From a virus: a stretch of DNA of 52,621 bases. This document shows, piece after piece, positions 11,903 to 52,495 of the stretch. The translations under genes and the position numbers were made by a program. The stretch is from the IMG/VR virus record IMGVR_UViG_3300018405_000026, positions 1 through 52,621 of that record, one strand, 5' to 3'. Within the stretch, counting starts at the first letter, position 1. Each line of letters opens with the position of its first letter. Below the pieces are notes generated by a model that was given only the letters and a program-made list of their open reading frames with translations, had not been told where the DNA came from and did no database searches.

Positions 11903-13000
11903 ATGGCTTCTTATACTAAAAGGGGCAAAACATGGACGTATATCGTATCTTACAAAGATAAAAACGGCGAATTTCAAACAGCGCGCAAAGGTGGTTTTCG
12001 CACCAAGCCTGAGGCAGCTGCAGCAGCTAGAGATATTGAAATCGCAATAGCCAAAGGTCATGATCCTAGCGTTAAGAAAAAACTTTTCTCGGACTATTTT
12101 AAAAATTGGATGGAATTATATAAAAAACCAGCAGTAACAGAAGTCACTTACCGTAAATATAAAGTGGCCTACAACAATATTAAAAAATTATTTCCTTACG
12201 AGACACTTGAGGATTTGGACCGTGACACATATCAAAGAGCGCTAAATGAATACGCCAAAACTACGGCTGAATCAACAGTCAAACGCTTAAACAGCTACAT
12301 AAGAGCGTGTTTAGCATACGCCTTAGAAGATAACACCATCTTCCGGGACCCGACGTTTAAAGCGGTAATTTCGGGCAATAATGAACGGGTAGTCGATGAA
12401 GAGGCGAAATTTTTAGAGAGAAAAGATTACGACAAGCTGATGGCCAATATTTCAAAAAGACCTCTGACGGCGTCAAAAATGCTGGTGATTATAGCTGCTC
12501 ACACTGGCGCACGATATGCAGAAATTTTAGGTTTGACGTGGAATGATATTGATTTCGAAGCCAAAACTGTGACCATTAGTAAAACTTGGCTATATAAATT
12601 GAAGCCGCCTGTATTCGGTGAAACTAAGAATAAAAAACGGCGCGTGATACTTGTAAGCGACGAATTGCTCGCCTTTATAAAAGAGATTGAAGCACACCAA
12701 GAGTTAAACGGCTCTAAAATTGATCGCATCATTAACGCACCCTGCTCAAACGAAGCAGTCAATAAATATTTACGCAAAGTGCAAACACAGATAGGCGTGA
12801 CTGAGAAACAAATAACACTACACGGGTTACGACATACACACGCTTCGCTATTGCTTTACGCCGACGTAAACATTATGCTTATAGCAGAACGACTTGGACA
12901 CAAAGACGTGACCGTCACGCAGACCGTCTATTCTCACGTATTAGAAGAAATGCGAAAAAATAAAGAAAATCAATTGATAAATTCTTTGAAAATTTTTTAA
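11903..13000 (+). CDS. int: Phage integrase, tyrosine recombinase
   Basis: The 365-aa protein has a full integrase layout: an AP2-like arm-binding domain (about 1-50, MASYTKRGKTWTYIVSYKDK, RTKPEAAAAARDIE), a SAM-like core-binding domain (about 60-160) and a catalytic domain. Catalytic residues visible are R204 (HTGARYAE), H307 and R310 (LHGLRHTHAS), H333 (RLGHKD) and Y343 (QTVYSHV). AGGAGG lies 7 nt before the ATG. It catalyses integration and excision at attP, probably in the repeat-rich region just downstream. A second recombinase at 50-52 kb shares its core (PTFKAVISGN versus PTYKAVISGN) but not its N-terminus. Confidence 0.95.
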   Translation: MASYTKRGKTWTYIVSYKDKNGEFQTARKGGFRTKPEAAAAARDIEIAIAKGHDPSVKKKLFSDYFKNWMELYKKPAVTEVTYRKYKVAYNNIKKLFPYETLEDLDRDTYQRALNEYAKTTAESTVKRLNSYIRACLAYALEDNTIFRDPTFKAVISGNNERVVDEEAKFLERKDYDKLMANISKRPLTASKMLVIIAAHTGARYAEILGLTWNDIDFEAKTVTISKTWLYKLKPPVFGETKNKKRRVILVSDELLAFIKEIEAHQELNGSKIDRIINAPCSNEAVNKYLRKVQTQIGVTEKQITLHGLRHTHASLLLYADVNIMLIAERLGHKDVTVTQTVYSHVLEEMRKNKENQLINSLKIF

Positions 13001-17493: not shown

Positions 17494-17757
17494 TTAGACA
17501 CCTCCTAACATCATCTCGACCAGTTCAGCGATTGCTAAATCTGAAGTCATTTGATTTTGTTTAATGGTCGACAAGATATAATCATCTTTTGTGTACTGCT
17601 TTAATTGATATCGGTAATGTACTACTGGTACTGTTTCTTCCCCAGTTTCAACCTCAACTTGAAATTCTTCAATATCTGTTGCTTCCCAAACTGAATACTC
17701 GTCAACTACGATCGGTTCTGGCAGTGTGTTACTTTCTACTATTCCGTGGTCTATCAT
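17494..17757 (-). CDS. Small tail-end hypothetical protein
   Basis: The 87-aa acidic protein has a beta-like N-terminus (IVVDEYSVWEATDIEEFQVE) and a helical C-terminus ending SDLAIAELVEMMLGGV, a motif common in short proteins after phage fibre genes. Its ATG overlaps the RT stop (TAATG), so it is coupled to the RT. It is not an obvious Avd: Avd is a basic, about 120-aa four-helix protein. Probable late structural accessory. Confidence 0.65.
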   Translation of the reverse strand: MIDHGIVESNTLPEPIVVDEYSVWEATDIEEFQVEVETGEETVPVVHYRYQLKQYTKDDYILSTIKQNQMTSDLAIAELVEMMLGGV

Positions 17758-18815
17758 TATGCAACTCCTCCTTTTATGTAATGTGTGTAATAGTAATCTG
17801 AGTGCACCTGCAACGGTGCGCTATATTTCTGATACAATCTGTGCGAATCGCAGTGTTTCAGCCAACCTTTATAGCTATTAAATGCTGCCCAGTCGTGTTC
17901 CGACATGTGTTGCCCTGATTCAATTTCCTTTGAGATATGAGTCATTTTACGTTTATATTCCTTGGCAATTGATTTTCGCAGCAACACAAAATCCTCAAAT
18001 GTTCGGTAGCCAATAAAATCAACCCCTCGAACAAATGTGGGGAACACCTGCCAGTTGTCTTTTACTTTTAAGCTCAATTTACTTTCGAGATTATCGCTAA
18101 TTTCGATCCGGAGTCTATGTAATTCGTCTTTATTGTCACTTAGAATTACTATGTCATCCATGTAGCGATAATAATATTTAACTTGCTTGACTTCTTTAAT
18201 CCAGTGGTCAAATTGCGATAAATAATAGTTTCCGCTGTATTGCGACAAATAGTTTCCAATCGGTATTCCTTTGGTACCTTCTGTTGAGTCAATAATTTCA
18301 TCGAGTAACCAAAGTAAATTAGGATCTTTAAACTTGCGACGGTATTTTTGTTTCAAAATATCATGATTTATTGAGGGGTAGTATTTAGAAACATCCATCT
18401 TCAGACAATATTTAGTACCTTGAGGGTCTTTCTTTATGGCTTCTCTCATCTTATTAAGACATAAGTGGGTTCCTCTCCCAGGTATCGCACTATAAGTGTC
18501 TGCCGTAAAATGCTTGATTAAGACAGGCTCAATGACTAGCATAATCGCCCATTGACAAATTCTATCTGGGAAATAAGGCAGTTTAAATATCTCCCGTTCT
18601 TTGCCGCTGTCGGACTTAATAAATGTTTCGTATTCCGAAGTTTTGTAAGTCTTATCCATTAGCATTTTCTGCAACTTTTCTAAATAATAATCAGGATTTT
18701 CATCCACCATTTTCACTTCTTTGTACCAACCTTTACCGACTTTTGCTTTTTGATGAGCCTTTTTAAGGTTATCCATGTTATACACTTTTTCATATAAATT
18801 CCCGTAACGTTTCAA
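17757..18815 (-). CDS. DGR reverse transcriptase
   Basis: The 352-aa RT is read from TTG 18815 (MKRYGNLYEK); an ATG 13 codons later is possible. Visible RT motifs are LPYFPDRICQWAIM (about 79-92), KMDVSKYYPSIN with catalytic D141, GIPIGNYLSQYSGNYYL (183-199), and YYYRYMDDIVIL with D220/D221. The SQ after the IPIGN block is diagnostic of DGR RTs, where group II intron and retron enzymes have other residues. No maturase or endonuclease domain. The RT makes adenine-mutagenised cDNA from TR RNA, which replaces VR in the fibre gene. It is coupled to the late operon, so it would be expressed with the fibre. Confidence 0.95.
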   Translation of the reverse strand: MKRYGNLYEKVYNMDNLKKAHQKAKVGKGWYKEVKMVDENPDYYLEKLQKMLMDKTYKTSEYETFIKSDSGKEREIFKLPYFPDRICQWAIMLVIEPVLIKHFTADTYSAIPGRGTHLCLNKMREAIKKDPQGTKYCLKMDVSKYYPSINHDILKQKYRRKFKDPNLLWLLDEIIDSTEGTKGIPIGNYLSQYSGNYYLSQFDHWIKEVKQVKYYYRYMDDIVILSDNKDELHRLRIEISDNLESKLSLKVKDNWQVFPTFVRGVDFIGYRTFEDFVLLRKSIAKEYKRKMTHISKEIESGQHMSEHDWAAFNSYKGWLKHCDSHRLYQKYSAPLQVHSDYYYTHYIKGGVA

Positions 18816-18917
18816 TGGTTTTTAGAACCTTTCAATTTTGTATGCAAATCAGCCGAGCGTTCGAGAGTGAACCTACTAGCACGGCGTCATTATTTTTATA
18901 TATTTTGCCAAGAGGCA

Positions 18918-18931
18918 GGGTAAAAGAAATA
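18918..18931 (+). repeat. Inverted repeat arm, RT side of TR
   Basis: GGGTAAAAGAAATA is the exact reverse complement of the 14 bp at 19114-19127. The TR (18949-19074) lies between the arms, 17 bp from this one. In the TR transcript the arms could pair and present TR in a closed loop. Confidence 0.85.
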
Positions 18932-18948
18932 ACACGTTATTCAGTTTT

Positions 18949-19074
18949 GCATTTACTAGGTGGGTGCCATGATTACGATTCCGATTAGCCGACGAATTAT
19001 TCACATTCCAAATGAAACCCCCACCATTCGTACCATTCGTCCAATTACTGCCGAAGATGGTGGTTAACCAAGTG
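18949..19074 (-). repeat. DGR template repeat (TR)
   Basis: These 126 bp are 106/126 identical, without gaps, to the VR at 19158-19283. All 20 differences are at adenines in the coding (minus) strand of TR. Many fall in AAT/AAC/ACT codons that in VR become S, G, Y, I, A, R or P codons. Read in the VR frame, TR encodes a continuous peptide with GGGFIWNVNNSS, but it is a non-coding template here. It lies between fibre gene and RT, as expected for the RNA donor of a DGR. The 329-bp gap between fibre and RT holds TR and its flanks; I see no gene in it. Confidence 0.95.
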
Positions 19075-19113
19075 AAGCTAAAAGGCTTTTTTGTCATCGT
19101 TTGTTCATACACA

Positions 19114-19127
19114 TATTTCTTTTACCC
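19114..19127 (+). repeat. Inverted repeat arm, VR side of TR
   Basis: TATTTCTTTTACCC pairs perfectly with 18918-18931. It lies between the fibre stop codon and the TR, 39 bp from the TR end. Confidence 0.85.
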
Positions 19128-19144: not shown

Positions 19145-20911
19145 TTAATTTTTTGCGGCATACACCAGGCGGGCGCCAGGACTACGATTCCGATAAGCCG
19201 ACGAAATATACACACCCCAAACGAAACCCCCACCACTCGCACCACTCGTCCAATTACCGCCGAAGATGGCGGCTAACCAAGCGGCCGTACTGGCTGCGTT
19301 TTGGTAGAAATGGTCTCCTACCGGAACAGCAGAGTTTCCAAGCGTCTCAGATGGGAAGAATAGCCAGTCAAACGGTTCATTATATGCCATGGCTGATACC
19401 CATCCGGTTGTTTTAGCAAGCGTAATGCCGGCATTTCTATAGCTACCGTCGCCTTTATCATCTGCGAAAGCGTGGTCAGCGACGTACAACTCGTGCAATC
19501 CTTGCGGCTTGATATTCATACCGTCGACCCATTTCCAAATATTCATCCAAAAGTTTTCTTCTCCTCGATACGTTACCGAGCCATTTTCAGCTTTTCCTGA
19601 AGCGTTACCGAGTAAAGCAGTTGCCCCAGTAGGCTCCGCCATATTTGTTGTAGCGTCGTCTGATTTAGTCACGCCCATACCGATTGCGTTTTGAGTATTA
19701 AACGTCCCATACTCAATCGCAAACAACAGTTGAGTTGCTGCAATCGTAGCTGCATAAGAAATGTCCCAGCCACTCCCGCGGTTCTGTGCGACGATTCTAG
19801 CGCCCCCGCGCGTCAATCCTTGAGTCAAACCTGATACCGGTTTAGCGTTAGCGATACTACTTAATTTATCACCAGTTGTCGCGGTGAAATCTCCGCCCTG
19901 GTCATCAATCAAGTTGTAAGCACTCGCAGACACGTCATATAAGCTCCCCTCGTACGCCGATAAGTAAATACGGTTAAGAACCTCACCATTCTTGATAAAG
20001 GCTGGGTGAAGCTTAAATCCGAGTTTAGGAGTATCCGAAACATAGTAGCGTGCTTTTCTTAAATGGTGGCCTTTTCCACCTTCAATTTTTTCAGTTACCA
20101 GAGGTACGACTTTGTAATAAAATTTCGGCTGTTCTACCATCACCTGGACGGGAGTTCCTACTGGATACGTCACACCATTTTTGGTAATCGACTGAGCTAA
20201 AGCTCCGGTTTCGGTGTAGCCTGCGTCTCCTAAATATCCTAAGTTGACGCCGTCGTCCGTCAACATGCAACGCTTACGGCCACCAAACATTTTAAAGCCA
20301 TCGAATGAGGCACCTGGAGTACGATTAACTGCACCCGAGAGACGGGTGAATTTGCTTGCTTTGAAATCAACTTCCAGGCCTAGAATATCATCATCTTTAT
20401 AGCCGACATAAGATTTCAAATCAATGATTTGTGCTTCTAAATCTCTCACATCACCAATCGTTGCGACTGCAGCCGGATCAACTTGAATTGTGACGTTACT
20501 TGAATTTCCGATGGTTGTGACAATTTTAAAATGCGCCCCGCTCGTCGTTTTGCCATTAAATGGTGGCATGAACCCAGCTTGTTGGGCCGTTGTTACAGCA
20601 AATAAGATAATGCCGTCTTGCGGGTCTTTTGCAAACAGTCCGATGGTGCGCATGTAATAACCGACGGTTAGTGACTCGTTGCCGACAGCCCCTTCCACTT
20701 GTACAGCTACTTCGTTAGTGCGTGTGACTTTTGACACCGCCGTGGTTTGTTTGATATTCGCTAATGCTGTAAGGTTTTCTAATTGCGACTCGCTATATGC
20801 TGTTTCCGACACGCGAATTTCTGTAAATTCTACTTTGCTAGAGCCACTCATTAGTTTGGCCATGAGTGCTTGACCTTTCTTCGTGATAACTACTTTTGAA
20901 AATTCTGACAT
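19145..20911 (-). CDS. Tail fibre / receptor-binding protein, DGR target
   Basis: The 588-aa protein has an N-terminal tail-fibre assembly domain (about 1-160; MSEFSKVVITKKGQALMAKL, the phage tail-collar/DUF3751 type that binds the baseplate). A middle region (about 165-420) follows, and then a C-terminal C-type-lectin/formylglycine-enzyme-like domain (EPFDWLFFPSETLG, PVGDHFYQNAA, FGGNW, GGGFVWGVYISSAYRNR). VR encodes its last about 40 residues. This layout matches Bordetella phage Mtd and other DGR-varied receptor binders, so DGR activity would change host tropism. It follows the baseplate genes J and DUF2313. Confidence 0.93.
   Translation of the reverse strand: MSEFSKVVITKKGQALMAKLMSGSSKVEFTEIRVSETAYSESQLENLTALANIKQTTAVSKVTRTNEVAVQVEGAVGNESLTVGYYMRTIGLFAKDPQDGIILFAVTTAQQAGFMPPFNGKTTSGAHFKIVTTIGNSSNVTIQVDPAAVATIGDVRDLEAQIIDLKSYVGYKDDDILGLEVDFKASKFTRLSGAVNRTPGASFDGFKMFGGRKRCMLTDDGVNLGYLGDAGYTETGALAQSITKNGVTYPVGTPVQVMVEQPKFYYKVVPLVTEKIEGGKGHHLRKARYYVSDTPKLGFKLHPAFIKNGEVLNRIYLSAYEGSLYDVSASAYNLIDDQGGDFTATTGDKLSSIANAKPVSGLTQGLTRGGARIVAQNRGSGWDISYAATIAATQLLFAIEYGTFNTQNAIGMGVTKSDDATTNMAEPTGATALLGNASGKAENGSVTYRGEENFWMNIWKWVDGMNIKPQGLHELYVADHAFADDKGDGSYRNAGITLAKTTGWVSAMAYNEPFDWLFFPSETLGNSAVPVGDHFYQNAASTAAWLAAIFGGNWTSGASGGGFVWGVYISSAYRNRSPGARLVYAAKN
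19158..19283 (-). repeat. DGR variable repeat (VR) at fibre gene 3' end
   Basis: The last variable codons of the fibre gene. Compared with TR, 15 sites read A to G, 4 A to T and 1 A to C (coding strand), and no other base type differs. About 16 codons change. The fixed residues (IFG, NW, GGGF, SSA, RNR, LV) match the core of the C-type-lectin-like fold of known DGR targets. The VR ends four codons before the stop. Confidence 0.95.
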
Positions 20912-43450: not shown

Positions 43451-44811
43451 TTTGATCTGGCCTCCTCAATTTTCGCTTTTACTGCTGCAATCAATTCGTT
43501 CTGTCCTTGGTCTTTCGTTTCCAATCGACGTCTCGCTCGAATATCTTCAGTGCCTTTCACAATGATTCGGTGCATAATGACTGTTTGTTCAGTTTGTCCT
43601 TGTCTGTAAAGTCTAGCCACTGCCTGCTGGTACAGTTCTAAGCTCCACGTCATCGAGAACCACACCATGATATTTCCTCCTTTCTGGAGGTTTAATCCAT
43701 GTCCAGCTGATGCAGGATGTGCTAATAAAATTGGTATCTCGCCTGCATTCCATTTGGCCACATCACCGTCATTGACATCTAAGACCTTTGCTTGCTTGAA
43801 CCTTTTTAGGATTCGGTCGCGGTCGTGCTGGAACCAATAGAATACTAGAATCGGCTTACCTTGGGCTTCTTCGACGATTCGCTCTAAGACGTTTAACTTC
43901 TCGTCGTGTACTTCGATAACTTTTTTATCTTCGTCGTAAATTGCCCCATTAGCAATTTGCTGAAGCTTGCCTGACAGAACTGCTGCATTCGCCGCAACTA
44001 ACTCGTCTTCGCCTAACGACAGCACATAATCACGTTCGAATGTGTCATATTGCTTTTTGCTTTTACCGTCCAGTTCGATTTCAAGGTCATTGACAATTAA
44101 CTCAGGCATATCTAAGTAATCTGCACTTTTCATCGAGATGGCTACGTCTTCGATTTTGTCATAGATTATTTGATCACTGCCCGGAATCAACTTGTAGCTA
44201 TACACTATGTGTCCGTTCATTTTATCCGGTGTGAAGTACTTACGACGGTATTTCGTAATATTATTTTCCAACCGTTCACCTCGGTCAATTAAATACATTT
44301 GGGACCACAGGTCCATTAAGCTGTTCGGCGCAGGCGTCCCAGTCAGTCCAACAAAACGTTTAAACTTAGGTCGAACTTTTCGTAAAGACTTAAACCGTTT
44401 AGATGCAGCCGATTTAAAGCTAGACAACTCATCGACGACCACCATGTCAAACGGCCAATCTTTCTGATAGCGATCAACCAACCACGTCACAACATCAACA
44501 TTGGTGATATAGATATCCGCCTCGATTTGCAAGGCTTCTAATCGCTGCTTAGGACTACCAATCACTTTGGAATAGGTCAAGTTCTGGAGATGGTCCCACT
44601 TTTCGATTTCGTCGCTCCATGTTTGTTTGGCCACATTTAAAGGTGCGATGACTAAAACTTTTCTGATTTGATTGAACCTGAATAAATAGTCAATTGCGGT
44701 TAACGTGGTTAATGTCTTGCCTAATCCCATGTCCTGAAACACGCCCGAATGATTCTTTCCTAAAATCCAATCAACAGAATGGTCTTGGTAACTATGCAAT
44801 TTACATTCCAT
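43447..44811 (-). CDS. SNF2-type DEAD-box helicase
   Basis: The 454-aa protein has superfamily 2 motifs: Q-like motif YQDHSVDWIL, Walker A QDMGLGKTLT (29-33), Ia VIAPLNVAKQTW, II VVDELSSFK, III GTPAPNS, V ILLAHPASAGHGLNLQKG, VI ARLYRQGQTEQ. It is the helicase that usually follows VRR-NUC in this replication cassette. Its first codons MECKL lie in a 48-bp segment duplicated before the recombinase at 52 kb. Confidence 0.94.
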   Translation of the reverse strand: MECKLHSYQDHSVDWILGKNHSGVFQDMGLGKTLTTLTAIDYLFRFNQIRKVLVIAPLNVAKQTWSDEIEKWDHLQNLTYSKVIGSPKQRLEALQIEADIYITNVDVVTWLVDRYQKDWPFDMVVVDELSSFKSAASKRFKSLRKVRPKFKRFVGLTGTPAPNSLMDLWSQMYLIDRGERLENNITKYRRKYFTPDKMNGHIVYSYKLIPGSDQIIYDKIEDVAISMKSADYLDMPELIVNDLEIELDGKSKKQYDTFERDYVLSLGEDELVAANAAVLSGKLQQIANGAIYDEDKKVIEVHDEKLNVLERIVEEAQGKPILVFYWFQHDRDRILKRFKQAKVLDVNDGDVAKWNAGEIPILLAHPASAGHGLNLQKGGNIMVWFSMTWSLELYQQAVARLYRQGQTEQTVIMHRIIVKGTEDIRARRRLETKDQGQNELIAAVKAKIEEARSN

Positions 44812-44844
44812 CGCTAATACGTCCTATCCATTCGTCTACCGCCT
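44797..44844. repeat. 48-bp direct repeat, copy A
   Basis: Matches 52032-52079 at 47 of 48 positions (G at 44834, A in the other). It covers the last codons of VRR-NUC (AVDEWIGRISDGM stop) and the first codons of the helicase (MECKL). Here both reading frames fit their families, so this is likely the source copy. Confidence 0.95.
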
Positions 44845-45082
44845 GCTTCGAATCTAAGATGTAAACCTTAATGCCGTGTTTCTCCATCTCTCTGTGTTCG
44901 GCCATTTGATCTGGTCTTGGTTTTTCACCGGGTCGTTTCAATTCTACAAAATATACATGGCCATTCATGATGGCGATTCTGTCCGGTACGCCTCTTCTAC
45001 CGGGTGACGTGTATTTTCGTGAAAGGCCACCTGCCTGTTTGATTTGTTGGTTGAAATACTTCTCTATATCTTTCTCTAACAT
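44801..45082 (-). CDS. VRR-NUC domain nuclease
   Basis: The 93-aa protein (MLEKDIEKYFNQQIKQAGGL, RKYTSPGRRGVPDRIAIMNG, VYFVELKRPGEKPRPDQMAE) is a stand-alone VRR-NUC nuclease with the PDR...ELK catalytic core. These are PD-(D/E)XK enzymes acting on branched or flap DNA in phage replication. It overlaps the helicase gene by 11 nt. Confidence 0.94.
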   Translation of the reverse strand: MLEKDIEKYFNQQIKQAGGLSRKYTSPGRRGVPDRIAIMNGHVYFVELKRPGEKPRPDQMAEHREMEKHGIKVYILDSKQAVDEWIGRISDGM

Positions 45083-45125
45083 GGCACCTCTCCTAAAAAT
45101 TATTTTATTTTTATTTTTTACGATG

Positions 45126-45355
45126 GGTTACAATTTTTTTCAACTCATTGCTTCTTCATAGGGGTTAACATGTTTAAACCTGTTTTTACATGTGTATATT
45201 CTATACCCTAAGAGTCTAATTTAGAAAAAATTGTAACTTTGTAACCCATACCCTTTAAACCCTTACTGTTATTAGCTTTACGGGGGTTACAATTTGGTTA
45301 CAAAGTTACAATTCTTCGAGAAAGGTTACAATTCTTGATTTTTAAAATTGTAACC
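45126..45355. other. Iteron-rich intergenic region, possible replication origin
   Basis: In the 306-bp gap between primase and VRR-NUC genes the 10-mer GGTTACAATT or close forms recur: plus strand at 45126, 45286, 45296 (partial), 45304 (AG), 45324; inverted AATTGTAAC(C) at 45229 and 45346. The last two form a perfect 10-bp inverted repeat (45324-45333 / 45346-45355) before a T run. The region is strongly AT-rich. Such iterons beside replication genes suggest an origin or regulator-binding cluster. No gene is visible here. Confidence 0.5.
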
Positions 45356-45388
45356 TTTTTTACCGCTTTTCTATAACAATGTTGAAGT

Positions 45389-49635: not shown

Positions 49636-50232
49636 TTAAACCCACTTATGTATATTCATAAATTCCATCAACTTGTCACTTTTCTGCATTACATGAACTT
49701 CGCTAAAACCTTCATATTGATTGCTAAGGCTACGAATGAAGTACACGTTTTTAAATTCGCGCGTCAAACTGTCACCGTGTAATATAGCGCCGTTCATACC
49801 TCGAATCGCCATATTAAAAATTAGGAAAGGCAAGCTTCGGTCAGATAACTCTTCCACTTGGTACCAATAATTCCGAGGATTGTACATCCAGAAATTCTCG
49901 CAGTTTAAACGATGTTCATGCCACGCCTGAATCATAATACCGCCATTACCTGCAGCAATTTCATAATAGGTGCGATTGTCACTAACCAATCTCGCCATCA
50001 ACTCACTAAGTGATGGCGGAGTAAAATCTTGTTTTTTATTTTTACGGTCAGCATGTTCATTTTCAAATGCCTCCTGGAACCATTCATAACTCATATCTGT
50101 TTCCAGTTCCAGAAATTTATGAAATGTTTCAACTCTTTTCTTCTCATCAAGCATTAGGCTGAGCAATTTAGCAGGTTGCTTGTAAGTATCATCTACGCCT
50201 AAAATGCCATTAATTTGTTCGCTTGTAAGCAT
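49636..50232 (-). CDS. N-6 DNA methylase-like phage protein, catalytic motif absent
   Basis: The 198-aa protein has a HsdM/N-6 methylase-like core: QDFTPPSLSELMARLV, motif I YEIAAGNGGIMIQAW (about 90-104), QVEELSDRSLPFLIFNMAIR, GAILHGDSLTREFKNVYFIR. The (N/D)PP(Y/F) catalytic tetrad expected after GDSL is missing; residues there read FIRSLSNQYEGF. Family members in phages share this; it may bind SAM or DNA without methylating. Its stop region overlaps no gene; its start abuts the recombinase stop. Confidence 0.7.
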   Translation of the reverse strand: MLTSEQINGILGVDDTYKQPAKLLSLMLDEKKRVETFHKFLELETDMSYEWFQEAFENEHADRKNKKQDFTPPSLSELMARLVSDNRTYYEIAAGNGGIMIQAWHEHRLNCENFWMYNPRNYWYQVEELSDRSLPFLIFNMAIRGMNGAILHGDSLTREFKNVYFIRSLSNQYEGFSEVHVMQKSDKLMEFMNIHKWV

Positions 50233-52046
50233 TACAGACCTCCTAGCGCATCTTGCAATATTTTGTCATCTTTACGTTCTAACTCTTCAGTGATATGCGA
50301 ATAGACTTTCTGCGTCGTCGCTAAATTGGAATGGCCTAACCGCTTAGAGATACTAATCATTGACACGCCTTTCGCTAATAACACACTCGCATGAGTATGT
50401 CGCAGGGAGTGAGTCGATATCACTTTAATATTTGCCTTTTTACAGCATTTCGCAAGGTAATCATTAATAGTCGGATTTAAGATGTGAGATAAATGTGTCA
50501 ACCAAATTGGCCGTTCCGTCTGCATATCTTTGGTGATAGTCTTAAACAGCTGCATGGTCTGTGGATCTAAACTAACGGTCCTTATCGACGATTTGTTCTT
50601 CGTTTTAGCAAAGCCTCCACCGGCAAGATTTTTATAATCCCACGTTTTATTAATTGAAATTACATTTGATTCGAAATTAAAATCAGACACCGTTAATCCT
50701 AGCGTTTCGCCAAATCTGAAGCCCGTTTTAGCAGTTAAATAAATGAACCAGCTACACACAGTGTTGAGATTTGAGAAGTCACTTCCGTAATCTAAAACTT
50801 TTAGTAGTTCTGTTAACTCTCTTTCGGATATAAATTTCGATTTTTTACGACCATGAGAATTACCAGAAATGACAGCTTTGTAAGTTGGATTTTTCGCAAT
50901 CAACCCTTCATATACCGCATCATTAATCGAAGCTTTAAGCACGTTATGGTAATCGCGTGCAGTCTGAATATGGTAGACCGTGCCCATCTCTGTCAGCATA
51001 TCTTGGTACACTGTACGCGTTAAATCCTTTATCTTTAAATCACCCAACAATCGCACTAAATTACCGTAGGCTGCTTGATAAGCTTGAACTGAAACATCTC
51101 GGATAATACCAACTTTGTATTTATGCACCCACCAACGGAAATAATCAGCGAACTTGGTTTCTTTCGTAATCTCTATATCAATCGGCCCCCATTCCGGACG
51201 ATCATAATAACCTGTCAGCAATCTAATTTTAGTATCATCTGACATTTTACGTTCGGCATGCTTCACGTTGATATCGTTAGCTCGACATACATAGTAGACA
51301 TATTCGGTATTGAATCCTGTAAGTTCTGCTATCTCAGCTGCGTCCTTACCTTCTGCCGCCCATTGACGTAATTCACCAACTCGGTGCGTTAACTTAATTC
51401 TTTTGACGCCATTTACAACACGGTATTTACTATCTTGGCCAAAGCGGTCGCTTTTAATTCCTTCTTTTCGGCAGTAACCTCTAACATAACCTGTGGAATA
51501 TCCAAACTTTTCAGCAATCTCCTTTAAACTAGAACCATCTTCAACCATCTTGGTAATTTCAACACGCTTTAAATGAATACCTCTTGGTTTAAAAGTAAGA
51601 TCGTGCTGTTTGCAATAACCCCGAATGCGCGACTCCTCATAGCCTAGTTCTTCAGCTATTTCCACGGCAGATAGGCCTTTATCAATCAACTGCTTTAATT
51701 CTGCATCTTTCTCGGCTAAACCTCGAACATCTTTAGGTATTTCAAAACCGCCTTCTTTTGCCCATCTGACAACGGTTTGTACAGTAACATCGAATTTTCC
51801 AGCAATTTCGGCGCGCGTCAGCGTCTTAGCGAACTCTTTAATTAATTCGTTACGCTCTTCAACGGATCCGTATTGAATGCTATTCTTTTTACCCGGCTGA
51901 ATTTTCAGCGCTAAACCGTAACGCTTTAATAACCTGTACATTTGTGTTTGACTGATATTAAAATGTTGACAAATTTCAAATCGATCCATCGTTTCAATCT
52001 TCTCTGTCAACTCCTCACGAATAGAATTTGACAATTTACATTCCAT
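50232..52046 (-). CDS. HTH-array tyrosine recombinase
   Basis: The 604-aa protein has about five HTH modules at 20-45 (FEICQHFNISQTQMYRLLKR), 77-100 (TRAEIAGKFDVTVQTVVRWA), 125-150 (SAVEIAEELGYEESRIRGYC), 172-196 (SSLKEIAEKFGYSTGYVRGY) and 234-260 (DAAEIAELTGFNTEYVYYVC). A SAM-like core-binding domain (about 298-395) and a tyrosine recombinase domain follow, with R444, H546, R549, H572 and Y582. The core resembles the integrase at 12 kb; the arm-binding domain is replaced by the HTH array. It lies inside the early operon, not beside att. Possible roles are excision, inversion or dimer resolution. Confidence 0.88.
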   Translation of the reverse strand: MECKLSNSIREELTEKIETMDRFEICQHFNISQTQMYRLLKRYGLALKIQPGKKNSIQYGSVEERNELIKEFAKTLTRAEIAGKFDVTVQTVVRWAKEGGFEIPKDVRGLAEKDAELKQLIDKGLSAVEIAEELGYEESRIRGYCKQHDLTFKPRGIHLKRVEITKMVEDGSSLKEIAEKFGYSTGYVRGYCRKEGIKSDRFGQDSKYRVVNGVKRIKLTHRVGELRQWAAEGKDAAEIAELTGFNTEYVYYVCRANDINVKHAERKMSDDTKIRLLTGYYDRPEWGPIDIEITKETKFADYFRWWVHKYKVGIIRDVSVQAYQAAYGNLVRLLGDLKIKDLTRTVYQDMLTEMGTVYHIQTARDYHNVLKASINDAVYEGLIAKNPTYKAVISGNSHGRKKSKFISERELTELLKVLDYGSDFSNLNTVCSWFIYLTAKTGFRFGETLGLTVSDFNFESNVISINKTWDYKNLAGGGFAKTKNKSSIRTVSLDPQTMQLFKTITKDMQTERPIWLTHLSHILNPTINDYLAKCCKKANIKVISTHSLRHTHASVLLAKGVSMISISKRLGHSNLATTQKVYSHITEELERKDDKILQDALGGL

Positions 52047-52079
52047 CGCTAATACGTCCTATCCATTCATCTACCGCCT
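52032..52079. repeat. 48-bp direct repeat, copy B
   Basis: Near-identical to 44797-44844 (one mismatch). Here it supplies the C-terminal residues of the DUF3310 protein and the first five of the recombinase (MECKL), although those proteins are unrelated to VRR-NUC and helicase. Confidence 0.95.
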
Positions 52080-52302
52080 CTTTCAAATGACGAATTTCAT
52101 ATTTCTCTAAGCGATTCAACACTTCAATACCTTTTTGTAGGTCAATCAGACCATTCTTTGCATGGTATCGGCGAATATAGCGTTCAGCTACACAGCGCAT
52201 GACATCTCGAAAGACTTCAAACGGCAGCCGTTGATACCACTCTTCAAATAGGTCTTCACCTAATGCATTTAAATAGTGCATTGGATTAATTTCATTCCGC
52301 AT
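52036..52302 (-). CDS. DUF3310 family protein with borrowed C-terminus
   Basis: Start ATG 52302 (MRNEINPMHYLNALGEDLFE). The 88-aa protein fits DUF3310 (SaV-like): NPxHY, LPFEVFRDVMRCVAERYIRR, YHAKNGLIDLQKGIEVLNRL. DUF3310 proteins occur in many phages, annotated as possible nucleotide kinases without proof. The last residues (AVDEWIGRISDGM) equal the VRR-NUC C-terminus and come from the 48-bp repeat. Confidence 0.78.
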   Translation of the reverse strand: MRNEINPMHYLNALGEDLFEEWYQRLPFEVFRDVMRCVAERYIRRYHAKNGLIDLQKGIEVLNRLEKYEIRHLKEAVDEWIGRISDGM

Positions 52303-52303
52303 C

Positions 52304-52495
52304 CTACCAACCCATCCTCTCAATCAAATTTTTATAAACTAAAATCTCCTCTTGGATCAAACGCTTTTGATTTACCAGCGTTGTAACTACGTACGGATAC
52401 TTAGGAGAGCAGAAGAAGATTGCCCCGTCTAACTCTTTAATATTGAGCTGCGCACGTCTCAGACGGCTTAACGTATCAGTTTTATTCGTTTTCAT
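52304..52495 (-). CDS. Small hypothetical early protein
   Basis: The 63-aa helical protein (MKTNKTDTLSRLRRAQLNIK, LVNQKRLIQEEILVYKNL) has GGAGGTGG 7 nt before ATG 52495 in the end of the upstream gene, which it overlaps by 4 nt. No family recognised. Confidence 0.65.
   Translation of the reverse strand: MKTNKTDTLSRLRRAQLNIKELDGAIFFCSPKYPYVVTTLVNQKRLIQEEILVYKNLIERMGW

What the first reader, a model, noticed from the sequence alone, without database searches (positions are those of the whole stretch)
18918..19127. TR enclosed by a perfect 14-bp inverted repeat
GGGTAAAAGAAATA (18918-18931) and its exact complement (19114-19127) flank the TR at 17 and 39 bp. A perfect 14-bp pair this close is unlikely by chance, even in AT-rich DNA. 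In RNA it would close TR into a stem-loop, or its arms could define the TR-RNA ends, aid RT priming or insulate TR from ribosomes running out of the fibre gene. I know of no standard DGR element of this form.
Basis: partly seen in the sequence, partly recalled or inferred. Interest (0 to 1): 0.72.

Follow-up and report, generated by a model that had tools for sequence, protein, structure and literature searches.

The report
Conserved RNA helix closing DGR template
The matching sequences on either side of this phage's mutable-gene template form an RNA stem that has been kept, with its letters rewritten in matched pairs, in dozens of related mutation-generating retroelements, so it is very probably a working part of the template RNA that the reverse transcriptase copies.

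Summary
The 14-bp perfect inverted repeat is real (18918-18931 / 19114-19127) and not chance: 0 of 3000 local shuffles contained one. The 3' arm ends exactly where the Rfam RNA families RT-17 or RT-18 begin. Anchored there, without using the 5' flank, a complementary 5' arm occurs upstream of TR in 23/26 RT-17-type loci at p<=0.01 and 17/25 RT-18-type loci at p<=0.05. Arm sequences differ between loci but stay paired: 88-91% of cells, against 34-53% when slid. G.T mismatches outnumber A.C 41 to 4 in RT-18, so the selected molecule is the TR-sense RNA. The same helix, in the same register before a small hairpin, appears in named phages, including a shorter form in the prototype BPP-1. Rfam RT-17, RT-18 and Phage_DGR do not model it. 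Best reading: a closing helix of the DGR template RNA, working like the retron a1/a2 stem, that holds priming spacer and TR together and probably sets the 5' end of the template. Function is inferred. The BPP-1 RNP papers could not be read, so it may be partly known there.

The parts
19114..19127 (-). 5' arm of the TR-closing helix (RNA sense GGGUAAAAGAAAUA); begins 17 nt after the fibre stop codon and ends 39 nt before TR
18918..18931 (-). 3' arm of the TR-closing helix (RNA sense UAUUUCUUUUACCC); starts 17 nt after TR; its last 5 nt are the first, unpaired positions of Rfam RT-17
18949..19074 (-). DGR template repeat (TR)
   Evidence: 85% identity to VR, substitutions at TR adenines
19158..19283 (-). 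DGR variable repeat (VR) at the 3' end of the fibre gene
18838..18922 (-). Rfam RT-17 RNA (RF03020), the conserved core between TR and the RT gene
   Evidence: 52.8 bits, gathering 40.4
18906..18917 (-). hairpin UGCC-UCUU-GGCA that directly follows the 3' arm
   Evidence: similar hairpin in the same place in relatives
17757..18815 (-). DGR-type reverse transcriptase, 352 aa (motifs IGNYLSQ and YMDD in the translation)
   Evidence: closest solved chain 8ub7 (328 aa), E 1.5e-34
19145..20911 (-). tail-collar fibre protein, DGR target

Best explanation
The inverted repeat is the closing helix of the DGR template RNA, transcribed on the - strand through fibre, TR and RT. The 5' arm, just after the fibre stop codon, pairs with the 3' arm, just before the RT-17 core, so TR lies in a closed loop with the hairpin UGCC-UCUU-GGCA directly beneath. 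Shown here: the pairing is conserved by matched changes, in the TR-sense RNA, at a fixed place relative to the RT-17/RT-18 core, in many DGRs. Inferred: RT binds the core, primes at a spacer nucleotide near the inner end of the 3' arm, copies TR inside the loop, and stops at or near the 5' arm. The helix would thus hold primer and template together and fix the 5' boundary of the template, much as the a1/a2 stem frames a retron RNA.
For: Anchored search, 3' arm fixed by the Rfam hit and its complement then sought upstream: 23/26 RT-17 loci p<=0.01 (Fisher 1e-33), 13/25 RT-18 loci p<=0.01 and 17/25 p<=0.05 (Fisher 2e-23). Blind test, 5' arm taken as the first RGGY after the target stop codon: own arms pair at 10.7 of 12 positions, arms of other loci at 7.6. 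Pair counts: RT-17 88% paired, 13 of 14 pairs with changes on both sides, slid versions 34-51%; RT-18 91%, 11 of 16, slid 36-53%; named phages 89%, slid 42-49%. Independent sister pairs: RT-17 45 compensated positions against 13 broken on one side and 2 on both. G.T 41 against A.C 4 in RT-18, including an invariant G.U at pair 4. In RT-18 loci the inner end of the 5' arm is mostly 0-3 nt from the 5' boundary of TR. In BPP-1 a spacer adenine primes cDNA and a motif at the 3' end of avd, just upstream of TR, terminates reverse transcription (PMC12875486).
Against: No experiment on this phage. In the window's own clade the 5' arm is 16-60 nt from TR, so a sharp stop at the helix would leave a non-homologous cDNA tail. 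No convincing helix was found in several loci (L034, L041, L084, L094, L100, L104, L111). Registers in A1-A3 were chosen by pairing, which inflates the percentage paired. The BPP-1 helix is only 7 bp and not significant on its own (p 0.27). The whole RNA folds no better than shuffles (z -0.36).
Confidence: 0.85

Rival explanations
1. The RNA helix is real, but its job is assembly or stability (holding TR RNA next to the RT-binding core, protecting or processing the RNA ends), not stopping cDNA synthesis.
For: The 3' arm abuts the conserved core in nearly all loci, while the distance from 5' arm to TR varies from 0 to 60 nt. For retron Eco1, termination was shown not to depend on ncRNA secondary structure (PMC8989520).
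Against: In RT-18 loci and several RT-17 loci the helix sits at the TR 5' boundary, and the upstream segment in BPP-1 is reported to terminate reverse transcription (PMC12875486).
Confidence: 0.45
2. A DNA-level inverted repeat: transposon-like ends, a recombination site or a cruciform around TR.
For: Fibre tip, TR and both arms differ together between L015 and L016 while core and RT are nearly identical.
Against: Many G.U pairs with far fewer A.C in RT-18; arms share little sequence between distant loci beyond the outer GG/CC; fixed register to the RNA core.
Confidence: 0.03
3. A barrier that shields TR from ribosomes leaving the fibre gene, or a transcription terminator.
For: The 5' arm starts 6-32 nt after the target stop codon in 21 of 22 RT-17 loci with a measured ORF.
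Against: In BPP-1 the matching sequence is inside avd; in RT-18 loci the arm can be over 100 nt from the stop; no terminator-like site on the - strand; the helix spans about 180 nt.
Confidence: 0.07
4. Chance match in AT-rich DNA.
For: None found.
Confidence: 0.01

Closest known systems
Rfam RT-17 RNA (RF03020)
   Same: The window's TR-RT spacer is a member (52.8 bits); the 3' arm runs into its first five positions.
   Different: The Rfam model starts with those positions unpaired and contains neither the TR nor the 5' arm, so it lacks the closing helix.
Rfam RT-18 RNA (RF03021)
   Same: Sister family in related DGRs, with the same helix directly 5' of the model.
   Different: Helix has an invariant G.U at pair 4, often a two-nucleotide mismatch at pairs 6-7, and usually abuts TR; the window scores below its cut-off (30.6 against 41.3).
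BPP-1 DGR template RNA / Rfam Phage_DGR (RF03022)
   Same: avd 3'-end sequence AGGGCAG can pair with CUGUCCU directly before the GCUUCGGC hairpin, the same register with the same AGG/CCU outer pairs.
   Different: Only 7 continuous pairs, 5' arm inside the avd gene; this window has 14 perfect pairs and no detectable Avd. Rfam shows the 3' side unpaired.
Retron a1/a2 inverted repeats
   Same: Template RNA enclosed by two inverted repeats, with priming next to them (PMC8989520).
   Different: From general knowledge: retrons do not retrohome into a VR, have an msr/msd RNA and a different RT clade. An analogy of working, not membership.
Stem-loop after IMH of VR in BPP-1
   Same: An inverted repeat that aids DGR homing (PMC12875486).
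   Different: It is beside VR in the target; this one encloses TR and is selected as RNA.

Membership tests
Diversity-generating retroelement | TR/VR pair differing mainly at TR adenines, VR in a target gene | tested here: met
   20 mismatches at A and none elsewhere over 126 nt
Diversity-generating retroelement | RT of the DGR clade | tested here: met
   Closest solved chain is the 328-aa RT of 8ub7, E 1.5e-34, same length as BPP-1 bRT; DGR RTs of named phages are its nearest annotated relatives; GxxxSQ and YMDD motifs in the translation
Diversity-generating retroelement | Avd accessory protein (present in many DGRs, not required of all) | tested here: not met
   No Avd in the window with a profile that recovers Avd in L113, L117 and L124
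Rfam RT-17 RNA (RF03020) | Score above gathering threshold over the full model | tested here: met
   52.8 bits against 40.4, model 1-95
TR-closing helix of DGR RNAs (defined here) | Covarying complementary arms on both sides of TR, 3' arm abutting the RNA core | tested here: met
TR-closing helix of DGR RNAs (defined here) | Helix forms in the cell and is needed for cDNA synthesis | not testable with these tools
   Needs RNA probing and mutants
Retron | msr/msd RNA with branching G and msDNA product | not tested
   Used only as an analogy; the locus has a TR/VR pair, which retrons lack

The most novel reading that the evidence does not exclude
A TR-closing helix, here seen with and without Avd, is a general part of DGR template RNAs that current RNA families miss. 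It frames reverse transcription inside a closed loop as a1/a2 does in retrons and sets the 5' end of the template, and in Avd-less DGRs a longer helix may take over part of Avd's role.
Probability: 0.4. Interest if true: 0.75.

Novelty: new variant of a known kind. Interest (0 to 1): 0.62.

Why it matters
[quoted passage not shown] What outside the TR is needed to copy it is known mainly from BPP-1. A covarying helix gives a simple rule for the ends of the template RNA in DGRs lacking Avd, lets TR ends be called from sequence, extends Rfam families, and gives a clean compensatory-mutation test of how DGR reverse transcription is framed.

Tried and rejected
Chance and DNA-repeat readings were rejected on the shuffle, cross-locus and G.U evidence. 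A terminator reading was rejected. The first candidate BPP-1 pairing (TCGCCGAAG/CTTCGGCGA) scored best but was dropped: it uses the hairpin that RF03022 already pairs and breaks the register seen elsewhere. Whole-RNA folding energy was uninformative. A fixed TR-offset rule for RT-18 gave only a weak blind signal, 11.1 of 16 own against 9.4 cross, probably because TR ends jitter. Handa 2018, Handa 2021, Handa 2025 and Naorem 2017 are not held; the look-up aimed at the 2017 RNA-motif survey also found nothing. A search for papers on RT-17 RNA found none.

Full report
The observation. The 14-bp perfect inverted repeat is at the stated coordinates. On the - strand the order is fibre gene with VR at its 3' end, 5' arm (19127->19114), TR (19074->18949), 3' arm (18931->18918), then RT. 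TR and VR differ at 20 adenines of TR and nowhere else over 126 nt. The repeat is not expected by chance: mean 0.0 in 60 shuffles of the whole window, 0 of 3000 in shuffles of the surrounding 324 bases.

What it abuts. Rfam places RT-17 RNA (RF03020) at 18838-18922 on the - strand. Its first five positions, drawn unpaired, are the last five bases of the 3' arm. The hairpin UGCC-UCUU-GGCA follows at once. The partner of the 3' arm lies beyond TR, outside the model.

Relatives. The RT protein fetched 80 viral and 26 genome loci. A TR/VR pair could be placed in 65 sequences including the window. Most have a 9-16 nt near-perfect helix between the VR-TR spacer and the TR-RT spacer, with arm sequences that differ between loci apart from outer GG/CC. 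Across 50 non-redundant loci, own flanks pair far better than flanks swapped between loci (mean score 27.3 against 17.1, Mann-Whitney p 2e-25).

Tests with less freedom. Fixing the 3' arm by the Rfam hit alone and then looking upstream gives 23/26 RT-17 loci at p<=0.01, and 13/25 RT-18 loci at p<=0.01 with 17/25 at p<=0.05. In most loci the helix ends within one nucleotide of the anchor. Choosing the 5' arm blindly as the first RGGY after the target stop codon still gives 10.7 of 12 paired against 7.6 for swapped arms, and 15 of 20 loci with at least 10 pairs against 57 of 380 swaps. Pair counts with slid and shuffled controls are (RT-17; RT-18; named phages). The alignments A1-A3 used there are constructs: the two arms joined by an artificial constant linker in place of TR, with registers chosen by pairing, so the percentages are upper values. 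On phylogenetically independent sister pairs, RT-17 helices show 45 compensated positions, 3 one-sided tolerated and 15 broken; RT-18 shows 18, 12 and 16.

RNA, and which strand. In RT-18 helices G.T mismatches outnumber A.C 41 to 4, partly because of an invariant G.U at pair 4. That is expected if the TR-sense RNA is selected. RT-17 helices have too few mismatches to tell (6 against 3).

How far it reaches. Named phages with diverged DGRs have the same arrangement, arms ending next to a small hairpin: Psychrobacillus phage Perkons, crAssphage LMMB, Bacillus phage BalMu-1, Vibrio phage VP58.5, Pseudoalteromonas phage ACA1, Pseudomonas phage Bise, Faecalibacterium phage Lagaffe and others. In BPP-1, AGGGCAG at the end of avd can pair with CUGUCCU directly before the hairpin of Rfam Phage_DGR. 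Taken alone the BPP-1 pairing is not significant; it rests on register and shared outer pairs. Avd was not detectable in the window or in the close relatives tested, while positive controls were recovered, so the helix occurs with and without Avd.

Mechanism. In BPP-1 the spacer folds and recruits bRT-Avd, a spacer adenine primes cDNA, and a motif at the 3' end of avd, just upstream of TR, ends it (PMC12875486). A helix joining the upstream segment to the spacer would explain why both flanks matter (inference). The position of the priming adenine relative to the 3' arm in BPP-1 (spacer A56) is from memory and was not verified. In RT-18 loci the helix mostly meets the TR 5' boundary within 3 nt, as a stop would; in the window's clade the gap is 16-60 nt, which argues for assembly or looser termination. 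Retron RNAs are likewise framed by the a1/a2 inverted repeats with priming next to them (PMC8989520); there, secondary structure was found not to cause termination in Eco1, a caution for the stop model. The confidence of 0.85 is for a conserved, functional TR-closing RNA helix; the stop role and the assembly role are about equally likely as its main task.

Novelty. [quoted passage not shown] It may already describe the equivalent pairing in BPP-1. What seems new is the covariation evidence, its breadth, the Avd-less cases, and the fact that Rfam RT-17, RT-18 and Phage_DGR lack the helix.

Noticed in passing
L015 and L016, upstream of the RT gene: RT proteins are 99% identical and the RT-17 core nearly so, but fibre tip, 5' arm, TR and 3' arm differ together, with identity resuming inside the 3' arm: the target/template cassette seems to be exchanged as a unit with both arms.
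   Followed up: partly
window 45123-45358: Cluster of direct and inverted copies of GGTTACAATTTT just upstream of the helicase-primase gene, iteron- or origin-like.
   Followed up: no
window 11903-13000 (+) and 50232-52046 (-): Two integrase-like tyrosine recombinase ORFs in one phage window; names from reading the translations only.
   Followed up: no
window 44801-45082 and 52036-52323: Two ORFs share the C-terminal sequence VDEWIGRISDGM, perhaps a redundant end of the assembled record.
   Followed up: no
L011 3867-3937 (-), L024 865-926: Hammerhead II ribozyme and RAGATH-18 RNA hits in related phage contigs.
   Followed up: no
RT-18 loci, helix pair 4: Invariant G.U wobble in all 21 sequences; the same G.U recurs in BPP-1 and several named phages, suggesting a protein contact.
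   Followed up: partly
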